Source: Pilatotrama ljubarskyi (taxonomy: Eukaryota; Basidiomycota; Agaricomycetes; Polyporales; Polyporaceae). From it: a stretch of DNA of 64,000 nt. The stretch covers positions 106,981-170,980 of the forward strand of contig MU277695.1 of assembly GCA_022385805.1 (NCBI GenBank). The letters are read 5' to 3'. The notes beneath the pieces were generated by a model that had not been told where the DNA came from, did not search any database, and was given only the letters and a program-made list of their open reading frames with translations. Below, piece by piece: positions 4,092 through 52,745 of this stretch. The position numbers and the translations under genes were made by a program. Each line of letters begins with the position of its first letter. Position 1 is the stretch's first letter.

Positions 4092-4541
4092 CCTGTGAAA
4101 GACCTTTGTTGCTTTGTGGCGCTGGCTTGGTCTCTGGACTCATGTCGCCCTCTAACACCAGCCGCACTTTACTGCCCTGGCTCGGCCACGCCACGAGTGG
4201 CCCCGTTTCGTGATCCGTCACTTTCACCAAACTGGGTCTTGAATACTGGCCAGCCACGGCTCCTCGCATGGCTGCTCCGGCGGCTTCCTCGCTATGGTCT
4301 GCCATGGACAATCCCGAAGCCATGTCGGCATACCGCTTTGTGGCTTCTCGCTACCCTCTCCCATGGCGCTCTTGCTTTGTCTGGCCCAAAGGCTGCCCCA
4401 GGACCCTTGTTGAGTATGAGCTGGTCAAAGCTCGCGCCCAGCTCGTATATGAGCCCGGTCTGCTCCCCTTGCTCTGCCGTTCGAGCTTGCGCCCTTTCGT
4501 ACGACGACGATACCCGGACACTCTCTTTCCGTCTCTGAGCT
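4092..4541 (-). CDS. Fragment of an unassigned gene or relic
   Basis: An acceptor after a CTAAT branch-like site opens a frame rich in Glu/Gln/Ala that runs through a G-L-I-Y-E-L-G-A-S segment. It then needs either a weak intron (about 54 nt, donor AAG/GTCCTG, ending at the TAG before the REATKRYAD segment) or a one-base frameshift to continue as a second, equally protein-like stretch. That stretch ends at a strong donor (GTAAGTC). I recognise no family. It may be part of a real gene whose other exons I could not place, or a decayed copy. The opposite strand is also open over part of this interval, so strand is uncertain. Confidence 0.25.
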
Positions 4542-49137: not shown

Positions 49138-52100
49138 CTATGACCGCGTCCACGCCGTCACCGTCTGCGCGAACCCGTTCCTGTTCGCCGAGTTCGGGAC
49201 GATGCCCTGCGCGTTCACGCTGATCTGGTACTGCGCCGCCACCGTCGACAGGCTGTATATCCCGACCGTCGACGCCGAGTCGATGTTCACGATCTGCTGC
49301 TGGCAGTTGAACGTGTTCAGGCAGCCCTGCCCGTAGTTCTACACACAGGTCCGGTGAGTGAGTGCTCGATGGACCGGATCGGAACCGAGGAAGGTAGGGT
49401 CTGCGCACCTGGAAGAAGCTGTAGAGCCCTGCGCCTGTGATTGTGCGGGGATGAAGGTGAGAACGACCCTCGTCTGACGCGTGGAGAAGGGAGCCGGAAG
49501 AGACGTACCGAACACCAGGATGTTCTGCGAGTTGGACACCGTGAGTGCCCAGGCGGCGCCCGGCCCGAGCGTGGGGTCCTTGTACGCCGAGTTCGGGATG
49601 AATGGCGCAGGGGGGACGGGGTTCGGTTGGAAGTACGGCTGCGGATGCGAGTGCGAGTGCGAGTGCGTGTTTAATCAGCTGTCATTGAGCCGTCGCAGAA
49701 GGGCGGGCGTACCGTCTCGGTTTGGATGAGGCCCATGTAGTGGTTCTGCGCGTTTACGAGGTAGTATTGGTATAAGATACTATGCTCGCCTAGTATAAGT
49801 GGTCAGTGTCTTACGTTCGTGACGGCGTTCGCAGTGTACACTCACTAGCTGTTCCGATCAGCCAGACAGGACCCTGCGACTCGGACATGATCCCGCGTCC
49901 GGTGTAGACGTTGATCTGCGGGCCCTGGTCCAAGTCGTGGTCTGCGTTCCACACCCACAGACCCTAGAAACGCCCATAGAATCAGCATAGTCCTCTTCGC
50001 TATTGGCAGGAAATACATACCTCGAAGTAGCCACTGGAAGAAGGGGTCAAATGAAGCGCGAGGAAGGCCGCGAAGCAGTTGTTGCCGCCTGCGCCAGACG
50101 TGGGGCAATTGTTCGCCTGCAGGTTCGTTCCCGCCTCTGCAGAATACGGAAGGTGAGCGGGCGCTTTTGGTACTGCAGCAAAGGCGAGACGTACTTCCGC
50201 CGAGGATGATGTGGGTATCCCAGGTTCCTGCAGCACCTTGCTGGCCGGCAGGGTCGTGCACGTTCCATTCGAGGACGACGGCGCCGGCGGCTGCGCGGAA
50301 CAATGCACGTCAAACGGCCTCTCCCATTGCCCTATGCGAGAGAGCGGACATACTGGGCCCGCGGGTCGAGAAGATCATGTCGGTAATCTCAAGTACGCCC
50401 TGCGAGCCGCTGGTGCCCGCGCGGACGACAGGGACGGCTGCGGGAGCTTCATGAGCACACACGGCATGACCACCCTCGTTCCAGCGACGACGTACGGTTG
50501 TTGTAGTCAAAGAAGGTGTTGCCGGTTCCGAGAATGGTGGCCCATGCCTCGCCAACGACTTGTGTGCCGGCAGGGATGGTGATCGTGTTCGTCACCACGT
50601 ACACGCCGGCGTCGAAGAAGATGATCTTGCAGCCGGCGTACTGTCCACCGCGAGGCCTCGTCAGCTTCCAGGACACATTGAAAGCGCAGAGGCGCCGCCT
50701 AACGAACCTTGTTGAACACGGCCTGGATGGCAGCGGTATCATCCGTCTGCCCATCGCCCTTCGCGCCCTGCGATTTGACGCTGATAAACTGGTCCGGGGC
50801 GTAGTTCGCGTACTGCGGGTGCGTTTTCCCGAATATCCGCCCCGCAGAGTCGAGCAGGCTCCCCGCCTTGTTGATCGCGCCGATGTTCGCCTGCACGAAG
50901 CGGCCCGTCGGGTTCGTGCCCGTGTACACGTTGCCCTGCGCCCATGAGTTGATCGTGGTCGTGCCGCCGGCGAGGACGACAGCGCCGCTCGCGACGCCGA
51001 CCGCGGTCGGGACGTTGTTCAGCCGGATGTTGTTCAACACGAGCGAGCCGTGCAGCACGCCGTTGCTTGGCTGGGAGTTGCGCACGAAGATGGGCGTGTT
51101 GGTCACGACGGCGTCGATGATCGCTTCGCCCCCGACGCCCTGGTTCTCTTGTGTCGTGCCTCCGGTGGCAAGGTCGAAGCCGACCTGGCAATTGTTGATT
51201 GTGACGCCTGTAAGGTGTTCCGATCAGACAGGATTGACCACTCAGAAGCTCAAGGGACACACCTTGGAAGGTCCATCCCCAGTTCCACAGCCCATAGACC
51301 TATGAGTAGGCAATGAGACATCCATGCACCGAGAAGCTCACGCTTGGAAGCAGCTTACAGCTGTGAACGTGTCAGAAGTCATCTCATAGCATGTTTGAGA
51401 GCCGAACTTACCAGTGTTGGCATTGTTGACGGTGATGTTGCGAACGGTAAACCTGCGAGCATATCCCCTTTGGAAGCCGATCGCGAGCGAGAGGGAACTT
51501 CCTTACTGTTGGTTACCGACCCACATGCCAAACTTTCCCCCATTGAACACAAGGTCTGTGCCAGCTGTTTAGCGCAAGGGGCCGTTGTGATGTCTAAAAG
51601 CGACCTACCGCCCATGAAGCCGCCGCTGAATACAGATGATCAGCGATTGCGCGTGGGATCTCATAACGAGAATCGCGGCGTACCTCCCATTCTCCATCCA
51701 GATTCCTTTCGTAACGGAGTGAATCAGCAAGAGAAGAGCGACGAGCCGGAACAATGCGACTGACCTTGATGGGCATTACCAGCCGCGGTGGACATCTGGA
51801 AGACGATGTTGATCAAGGAAGTCGCCTGCGATACCTGCCAGTGAATGCCCGTCGCCGATGCAGATGTTGGCATGCGCGAGACATCGATCTTGAAGTTCCG
51901 GATGGAGTGGTAGCTGTTCGCAGATTTGATCATCGGTTCAGGCCCAGACGATAGAGTGGGCGAAACGCTTACAAGTTGTTTTGGTTGACGTACCAGCCGG
52001 GATCAGCATCTATGAACGATATCTCGGTCAGTTCCGACTTAACTCGTACTGAGGAGATACGTACCGATGACAGCTATGCCCTGGAAGTTCGGAGTCGCGA

Positions 52101-52745
52101 CGAGAGTGGGCATGTGTTTGGCATCTCCGATCAGCTGGGTGTAGTAGTACGAAATTATGGGTGCCGAGACGAGGTATGTTCTGTGGCAGTGTCAAATACA
52201 AGCCCAACATCCCGTGGACAGACATGACGTACCCTTGCGGGAAGTAGACGAGAGCAGGAGACACCCTAGGAGATGAGAATGAGCCCAGTTGGCTGAACGG
52301 AATTGATCAGAATGTTTACGTGGATTGCCCGCATCCATTGCCGCAACGGTTGCCGGACGAGATAGCAGCGCTGCTCAGGCGTGAGTACTACGCCCCGGGG
52401 CTGCGGATGAGGGCAGTAGGTTCTCACTTAATTGCCGCCGTATCATCGGTGACACCGTCGCCTTTAGCGCCGAAGTCCTGCAGCACACCAAGTTAATCTT
52501 GGGCTCCACTCGAAGGCATAAGTAGTCACCTTGACGTTACGGAAGACCTGGTATCCGCCGGAGTTGCTATTGAATGGTGCGCTCCCTCGGTGTTGTATCT
52601 GCTCCAACCAAAACGGTGCGCTAGGAGAGGCGGTTCCGATCGTAACCGGAGCAGAGCATTGCGTGCCGAGGCCAGAGACGAGAGCCCCCAGACCAAGAAA
52701 CATCAAGAAGTGTAGGAGCATCGACGTCGGACGTATGAGATGCAT
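49138..52745 (-). CDS. GH55 exo-beta-1,3-glucanase, secreted
   Basis: Twenty-three exons join in frame to 773 aa: 52530-52745, 52428-52477, 52320-52370, 52233-52265, 52065-52180, 51973-52009, 51765-51913, 51684-51705, 51609-51625, 51507-51564, 51412-51452, 51359-51360, 51263-51299, 50708-51207, 50496-50640, 50354-50437, 50195-50290, 50021-50136, 49846-49963, 49713-49789, 49509-49638, 49409-49434, 49138-49338. A signal peptide (first ATG or the one 8 codons later) precedes two right-handed beta-helix halves, each opening with a D-G-x-T-D-D-T-A-A-I motif (D-F-G-A-K-G-D-G-V-T-D-D; A-K-G-D-G-Q-T-D-D). V-V-L-E-W-N-V, W-D-T-H-I-I-L-G-G and Q-T-E-T-P-Y-F-Q-P-N-P follow, as in Phanerochaete Lam55A. 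Such enzymes release glucose or gentiobiose from beta-1,3/1,6-glucan, as in wall turnover or storage glucan use. Exon 12 is just two nucleotides (see findings). Confidence 0.9.

What the first reader, a model, noticed from the sequence alone, without database searches (positions are those of the whole stretch)
51359..51360. Predicted 2-nt microexon in the GH55 glucanase gene
Exon 11 ends in phase 1 at a strong donor (G/GTAAGT), and the next conserved exon (V-Y-G-L-W-N-W-G-W) begins in phase 0 at CATAG/GTC, so exactly 2 mod 3 nucleotides are missing. Between them the minus strand reads TTCACAG/CT/GTAAGC. The CT completes G/CT = Ala and leaves introns of 51 and 59 nt, the normal size here, instead of one of 112 nt. 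All 22 other exons fit in frame, so a frameshift elsewhere is not needed. Exons of 1-3 nt are very rare and need special recognition.
Basis: partly seen in the sequence, partly recalled or inferred. Interest (0 to 1): 0.8.

Follow-up and report, generated by a model that had tools for sequence, protein, structure and literature searches.

The report
Two-nucleotide exon in fungal glucanase gene
A wood-decay fungus gene for a glucan-digesting enzyme very probably contains an exon only two letters long, which completes one amino-acid codon and which gene-prediction programs seem to have stumbled over in related fungi too.

Summary
On the minus strand, exon 11 of a GH55 exo-beta-1,3-glucanase gene ends in phase 1 at G/GTAAGT, exon 13 begins in phase 0 at CATAG/GTC, and between them lies CACAG/CT/GTAAGC. 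The 2-nt exon gives a 23-exon, 770-residue protein with the conserved single Ala (NTAVYGLW), aligned without a gap at this junction to solved structure 3eqn. With these outer sites it is the only in-frame two-intron solution (introns of 35 nt or more). Introns of 51 and 59 nt match the other 20 (52-74 nt). Of 466 other GT...AG 112-mers in the window, 5 contain a 2-nt exon at the weakest site scores found in this gene, none at median scores. In the fully supported orthologue clade, 5 of 9 annotated proteins have indels exactly at this junction (3 of 111 outside it), as expected if predictors cannot place the exon. A paralogue in the same genome has one phase-1 intron at this codon, and Grifola's misread model suggests the same, so the downstream intron was probably gained 2 nt from the old one. 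No transcript or orthologue DNA could be examined. Main rival: retention of intron 11 (in frame, +17 residues). One-nucleotide exons are known in Fusarium and Arabidopsis, so this is a new member of a known kind.

The parts
49138..52745 (-). GH55 exo-beta-1,3-glucanase gene, coding region, 23 exons, 770 aa plus stop
   Evidence: Spliced; PDB 3eqn matches residues 25-443 of the N-terminal 443 aa, E 1.2e-183; best-matching orthologue P0001 (Trametes meyenii) 90% over 100% of the full protein
51412..51452 (-). exon 11 (41 nt), ends in phase 1: ...AAC ACT G
51361..51411 (-). intron 11 (51 nt), GTAAGT...CTGAC...TTCACAG; multiple of 3 and stop-free, the only one of 22 introns that is both
51371..51375 (-). 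candidate branch point CTGAC of intron 11
   Evidence: matches YTRAY; 11 of 20 other introns have one 8-40 nt from the acceptor
51359..51360 (-). 2-nt exon 12, CT, completing G|CT = Ala
51300..51358 (-). intron 12 (59 nt), GTAAGC...CTCAT...CTCATAG
51313..51317 (-). candidate (non-ideal) branch point CTCAT of intron 12
51263..51299 (-). exon 13 (37 nt), starts in phase 0: GTC TAT GGG CTG TGG AAC TGG GGA TGG

Best explanation
A real, constitutively needed 2-nt coding exon (CT) separates introns 11 and 12 of the GH55 glucanase gene. An old phase-1 intron inside the Ala codon (G|CT) was joined, in the ancestor of the polypore orthologue clade that holds this gene, by a second phase-0 intron just after that codon, which left two exonic bases between them. 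Each intron is a normal short fungal intron with its own donor and acceptor. Because the acceptor AG of intron 11 and the donor GT of intron 12 are only 2 nt apart, both cannot be occupied at once, so the introns must come out one after the other. Removing intron 11 first leaves CTGCT/GTAAGC, with the donor's -3 to +6 bases unchanged (GCT/GTAAGC), so the second step needs no special factor. Shown: sequence, frame, site scores, conservation of the residue, annotation anomalies. Inferred: splicing itself, its order, conservation of the 2-nt exon in the clade, and the time of the intron gain.
For: Frame and 23-exon model. Only in-frame two-intron solution for the outer sites, and no single GT-AG intron that keeps the NTAVYG residues without deletion or insertion (introns of 35 nt or more). 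Donor 12 (+1 to +6) scores 7.4 bits, reached by 9 of the 20 other introns; acceptor 11 scores 7.2, reached by 1 of 20; intron sizes 51 and 59 against 52-74. Chance: 5, 1 and 0 of 466 controls at minimum, lower-quartile and median thresholds. 3eqn reads NANTAINAIWNWGW, aligned without a gap at the junction. One residue at this place with both flanks present in 112 of 120 homologues. Clade of the window plus P0001-P0009, 100/100: 5 of 9 annotated proteins have indels at this junction against 3 of 111 outside it (P0040, P0105, P0118; Fisher p 3e-5) and 8 of 180 at the other 20 junctions of the same nine (p 7e-5). Neither p allows for relatedness or for choosing the test afterwards. The odd peptides read like translated splice sites: GMSLT and GVSL... 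start like this gene's donors 16 and 13 read on in phase 1 (GMS, GVS), and GALQ ends in Q directly before V, as CAG|GTC would. Paralogue on C9: single phase-1 intron at the same codon, annotated as NADTAIYSIW. Sister Grifola P0106 (98/96) reads ...SCIAVFGVW, as if ATAG|CN GTN TTY were contiguous there.
Against: No RNA read or cDNA of this gene or clade was seen; no DNA of any orthologue could be fetched (no relative; 1 unrelated hit). The two nearest orthologues (P0001, P0002) simply have Ala, and P0004 and P0006 have Gly; these four do not tell whether a 2-nt exon exists there. Gly is also a natural residue there (21 of 113), so the Gly that opens the odd peptides is weak evidence by itself. 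Scored over -3 to +6 (exon bases included) donor 12 gets only 5.5 bits, below 13 of the 20 other introns. Intron 12 lacks a perfect YTRAY branch point. Keeping intron 11 also preserves the frame.
Confidence: 0.88

Rival explanations
1. Intron 11 is not removed: its 51 nt are coding and give a 17-residue insertion (NTGKFGSQTCYEMTSDTFTAVYG) followed by one ordinary phase-0 intron of 59 nt. It could also be an alternative isoform.
For: 51 nt is a multiple of 3 with no stop, the only one of 22 introns with both properties; one canonical intron is then enough.
Against: The 51 nt have donor GTAAGT (9.1 bits; only 1 of the 20 other introns scores higher), CTGAC and CACAG. None of the 120 homologues listed has an insertion of this length between the flanking Thr and Val positions; the longest odd peptide there has 10 residues, and the odd peptides of clade members resemble neither each other nor this one. 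The paralogue has an intron here and the solved relatives no insertion.
Confidence: 0.06
2. A 2-nt deletion (real, making a pseudogene, or an assembly error) removed CT from exon 13, and the gene has one 112-nt intron.
For: The ancestral form seems to be a single phase-1 intron with the last two bases of the Ala codon at the start of the next exon (paralogue; Grifola).
Against: The other 22 exons are open and in frame; 112 nt is far outside the 52-74 nt of the other introns; a good AG/CT/GTAAGC would then sit there by chance (0 of 466 at median scores); independent genomes have trouble at the same junction.
Confidence: 0.03
3. A non-canonical single intron (GC-AG, AT-AC or an unusual acceptor) restores the frame without a tiny exon.
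For: Nine single-intron frame-keeping joins exist if GC-AG and AT-AC ends are allowed beside GT-AG.
Against: Each deletes conserved residues or inserts intron sequence; none gives NTAVYG alone.
Confidence: 0.02
4. A stwintron: one intron nested inside another, with the whole 112 nt removed.
For: Stwintrons occur in fungi (search listing) and also need consecutive splicing.
Against: Removing all 112 nt leaves the frame broken (stop after 428 aa); of the inner joins listed only CT is in frame.
Confidence: 0.01

Closest known systems
1-nt exon of CYP621A P450 genes in Fusarium (PMC12940212, parts 1 and 2 of 3 of the text read)
   Same: Fungus; tiny exon completing a conserved codon; found from a phase clash and an over-long intron; nearly all gene models wrong at the site
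   Different: 1 nt (G, AG/G/GT), ascomycete, supported by 18 RNA reads and 20 orthologous genes; here 2 nt (CT), basidiomycete, no RNA
1-nt exons of APC11 and VPS55 in plants (PMC4674806 and PMC8831610, passages read)
   Same: Tiny, conserved, missed by annotation
   Different: Plants; 1 nt; RT-PCR and RNA-seq proof; some VPS55 copies spliced alternatively
Small exons of Phanerochaete chrysosporium P450 genes (PMC1184071, passages read)
   Same: White-rot basidiomycete with short introns and very short exons
   Different: Shortest exon reported there is 6 bp
GH55 glucanase with solved structure, PDB 3eqn (its name Lam55A and its species are recalled)
   Same: Same protein family, same residue at the junction
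   Different: No gene structure examined

Membership tests
Ultra-small (1-3 nt) constitutive exon | Reading frame needs the missing nucleotides and nothing else nearby repairs it without changing conserved residues | tested here: met
Ultra-small (1-3 nt) constitutive exon | Flanked by canonical acceptor and donor of normal strength, introns of normal size | tested here: met
   donor 12 is weaker (5.5 bits) if its exon bases are scored too
Ultra-small (1-3 nt) constitutive exon | Encoded residue conserved in homologues without the exon | tested here: met
Ultra-small (1-3 nt) constitutive exon | Arrangement conserved in orthologous genes (DNA) | tested here: inconclusive
   only proteins available; 5 of 9 clade members odd at this junction, 4 of 9 uninformative
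Ultra-small (1-3 nt) constitutive exon | Included in mature transcripts | not testable with these tools
   no RNA data held
GH55 exo-beta-1,3-glucanase | Full-length similarity to characterised members | tested here: met
   3eqn E 1.2e-183 over residues 25-443; full-length homologues annotated exo-beta-1,3-glucanase. Enzyme activity not testable here
Stwintron | Internal intron interrupts a splice element of an external intron; both removed with no exon left between | tested here: not met
   removal of all 112 nt breaks the frame

The most novel reading that the evidence does not exclude
A 2-nt exon, the first reported for a basidiomycete as far as the listings show (searches listed 20 of 103 and 20 of 478 papers), arose once when an intron inserted 2 nt downstream of an older one in the ancestor of the Trametes-Ganoderma-Cerioporus-Epithele orthologue clade. 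It has been kept ever since, although each copy must be spliced strictly one intron after the other and annotation pipelines mis-model it.
Probability: 0.6. Interest if true: 0.55.

Novelty: new member of a known kind. Interest (0 to 1): 0.45.

Why it matters
It would add a 2-nt case in another fungal phylum to the very short list of exons below 3 nt. Because old intron, new intron and an outgroup without the new intron can all be placed, it would let one date how such an exon arises (intron gain next to an intron) rather than only that it exists. It also gives a practical warning: 5 of 9 published models of this enzyme in the clade look wrong at one conserved stretch, which would spoil expression constructs made from them. 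A 2-nt exon between two short introns is also a clean substrate for testing whether splicing can be forced to be sequential.

Tried and rejected
Single-intron GT-AG, GC-AG and AT-AC solutions: all nine lose or add residues. Other tiny exons of 12, 19 or 1 nt with the same outer sites: all out of frame. Retention of intron 11, of intron 12, of both, and skipping: only retention of intron 11 stays open. Origin of intron 12 as a copy of intron 11: local alignment score 11, reached by 171 of 231 intron pairs (that pair included), so no sign of duplication. Search for fragments or transcripts of close orthologues (116-aa query): of the 120 hits listed, 8 match a clade member best, at 60-82% identity, and none of these 8 is recognisably a spliced transcript of a clade gene over this junction; P0177 and P0184, whose best match is P0006 at only 76% and 69%, read DTAIYMNW and DTAVYMNW without a break (the last two remarks read by eye). 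DNA of orthologues: viral contigs gave none; a genome contigs pattern for WNWGWTFQ gave one contig that is not a GH55 gene by its translation around the match. Pfam PF12708 in the own genome matched only this gene and the C9 paralogue. A third protein search with the full-length protein was made because the first, with a 443-aa query, could only see proteins up to about 775 aa; of the 67 new proteins among the 120 listed, none has its best match in the clade. The first chance control counted the finding itself among 467 stretches and used thresholds set at its own scores; one search replaces it. Outside the clade other junctions are often odd (0 to 41 of 111, mostly in the C-terminal part), so the 3 of 111 here is a low value, not a typical one; two of the three (P0105, P0118) are the same species. 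Papers PMC4014442, PMC8022950 and PMC3990503 mention microexons only as an aligner option in the passages seen. PMC13149111 and PMC11121469 were searched by passages; the latter describes a 20-nt microexon in Trichoderma. The two papers that hold phrases such as 'exon of 2 bp' (PMC7725694, PMC8760474) were seen in the listing only. A search for papers on the species listed three, none opened.

Full report
What was checked. The window is part of contig C26 of a 33.1-Mb assembly in 173 contigs. Its GH55 paralogue lies on contig C9 of 668,816 bases, and the database protein P0015, annotated Pilatotrama ljubarskyi, lies on a contig of that length, so the genome is probably that species (Polyporaceae). 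This is an inference from contig length. The gene reads on the minus strand.

Gene model. Exon by exon the coding region runs from 52745 to 49138 in 23 exons and gives 770 residues and a stop. The two introns in question are 51 and 59 nt; the other 20 are 52-74 nt. Exon 10 has to start at 51555 to give the conserved MGDLVF; the upstream AG used in my first model adds three residues but does not change the frame. Every other junction fits. CT gives G|CT = Ala.

Is the frame clash real and is CT the only answer? With the outer sites fixed and introns of at least 35 nt, four AG...GT pairs can be written between them; only CT is in frame. Nine single-intron joins keep the frame if GC-AG and AT-AC ends are allowed beside GT-AG, but each deletes conserved residues or adds intron sequence. 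Keeping intron 11 and removing intron 12 is the one of these that deserves to stay open as a rival: intron 11 is 51 nt and stop-free, the only one of 22 introns that is both a multiple of three and open. Skipping CT gives a stop after 428 residues, keeping intron 12 a stop after 267, keeping both a stop after 284.

Chance. A bare AG-NN-GT in the right place is not rare: 5% of 20,000 dinucleotide shuffles and 50 of 467 real GT..AG stretches of 112 nt in the window, a set that includes the finding. Scored with matrices from the other 20 introns of this gene, the intronic sites are good: donor 12 GTAAGC 7.4 bits (9 of 20 others reach it) and acceptor 11 TCACAG 7.2 bits (1 of 20 reaches it). With the three exon bases included donor 12 drops to 5.5 bits, below 13 of the 20. 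Among 466 other such stretches, 5 hold a 2-nt exon at the minimum scores of the gene's own introns (2 of them would give Ala), 1 at the lower quartiles and none at the medians. Intron 11 has a perfect CTGAC branch-point candidate; intron 12 only CTCAT, as have introns 3 and 15.

Protein evidence. The solved sequences 3eqn and 5m5z align without a gap at the junction and have one Ala at the site; a distant third one, 8jhh, does not align clearly there. In the 120 best homologues of the first search, 112 have exactly one residue there with both flanks present; over the 113 with one residue it is Ala in 89, Gly in 21, Cys in 2 and Glu in 1. None has a 17-residue insertion at that place.

Orthologues. 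In trees of 46 and 30 proteins the window protein and P0001-P0009 form a clade with 100/100 support: Trametes meyenii, T. versicolor, T. gibbosa, Dichomitus squalens, Cerioporus squamosus, Daedaleopsis nitida, Earliella scabrosa, Epithele typhae and Ganoderma adspersum (names). Five of these nine have insertions or deletions exactly at this junction: GALQ, GMP, GMSLT and GVSLRSSDAD in place of one residue, and the VYGLWNWGWTFQ exon missing in Ganoderma. Outside the clade 3 of 111 do (P0040, P0105, P0118, the last two from one species); at the other 20 junctions of the same nine proteins there are 8 anomalies in 180. The Fisher p values (3e-5 and 7e-5) do not correct for relatedness or for post-hoc choice. 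I read the odd peptides as work-arounds of gene predictors that cannot place a 2-nt exon. All four begin with Gly, as G|GT would give; three continue as this gene's own donors would if read on in phase 1 (GMS as donor 16, GVS as donor 13, GM as donors 16 and 18), and GALQ ends with Q directly before V, as expected if CAG|GTC is the phase-0 acceptor. Against it, or neutral: Gly is natural here in 21 of 113 homologues, the two closest orthologues have plain Ala, and Dichomitus and Daedaleopsis have plain Gly.

Polarity. The paralogue on C9 has a single phase-1 intron at the same codon, ACC G|GTGCGT...TGTAG|CC ATC TAC, and its published protein reads NADTAIYSIW, so the published model of that gene is right where no tiny exon is needed. 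The Grifola frondosa protein P0106, sister to the clade (98/96), is badly mis-modelled upstream but reads ...SRISFSCIAVFGVW. I A V F is what ATAG|CN GTN TTY would give, that is an acceptor directly followed by CN GTN without an intron between. This suggests that intron 12 was gained after the split from Grifola, 2 nt downstream of the older intron. It rests on one protein model. Intron 12 shows no special similarity to intron 11.

Mechanism. Both introns are short and have their own sites, so each can be recognised across the intron. The AG of intron 11 and the GT of intron 12 are 2 nt apart; a bound 3' splice-site complex and U1 on the next donor would overlap (general knowledge of splice-site footprints, recalled), so the two introns cannot be prepared at the same time and are removed in turn. 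Removing intron 11 leaves the donor's bases -3 to +6 unchanged (GCT/GTAAGC), since exon 11 and intron 11 both end in G. Nothing special is needed beyond order; the order itself is not known.

Known or new. A 1-nt exon in 20 Fusarium CYP621A genes, supported by RNA reads, was published in February 2026 with the same line of reasoning (PMC12940212, text parts 1 and 2 of 3 read). It cites exons of 2-5 nt in Arabidopsis, Drosophila and humans. One-nucleotide exons of plant APC11 and VPS55 are established (PMC4674806, PMC8831610, passages). In Phanerochaete chrysosporium P450 genes the shortest exon reported is 6 bp (PMC1184071, passages). The listings (20 of 103, 12 of 12, 25 of 25, 2 of 2 and 20 of 478 papers) show no title or start of abstract about a 2-nt exon in a basidiomycete, in a library that lacks most subscription papers. 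The finding is therefore a new member of a known kind, with a useful evolutionary setting, and it still needs RNA.

Noticed in passing
51361-51411: Intron 11 is the only one of the gene's 22 introns that is both a multiple of three and stop-free, so its retention would give a full-length protein with 17 extra residues; a possible isoform.
   Followed up: partly
51555-51564: Two in-frame acceptors 9 nt apart (CTAAACAG and CTGGCACAG) before exon 10; the downstream one gives the conserved MGDLVF. The Trametes meyenii model (P0001) has two extra residues at the same junction.
   Followed up: partly
49639-49712 (intron 20): Intron 20 contains a short run of a CACTCG-like hexamer repeat and is one of the two longest introns (74 nt).
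   Followed up: no
L005 (G000:C9:59000-66000): GH55 paralogue whose introns, read by eye, differ in several positions (extra ones within FNGGK and WNWGW), a hint of active intron gain or loss in this family.
   Followed up: partly
P0106 (Grifola frondosa, protein only): Published model looks frameshifted over the FNGGKFGMWVGNQQ stretch and lacks the FTVRNITVNNA exon (read by eye).
   Followed up: partly
P0105 and P0118 (Taiwanofungus camphoratus, proteins only): Two models of this fungus also break at the same junction although they lie outside the window's clade P0001-P0009; another tiny exon or an ordinary model error.
   Followed up: no
L018, positions 4322-4345: A Synechococcus MAG contig holds an exact match to the degenerate 24-base WNWGWTFQ pattern, but the surrounding frame is full of stops and shows nothing GH55-like to the eye; probably chance.
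   Followed up: partly
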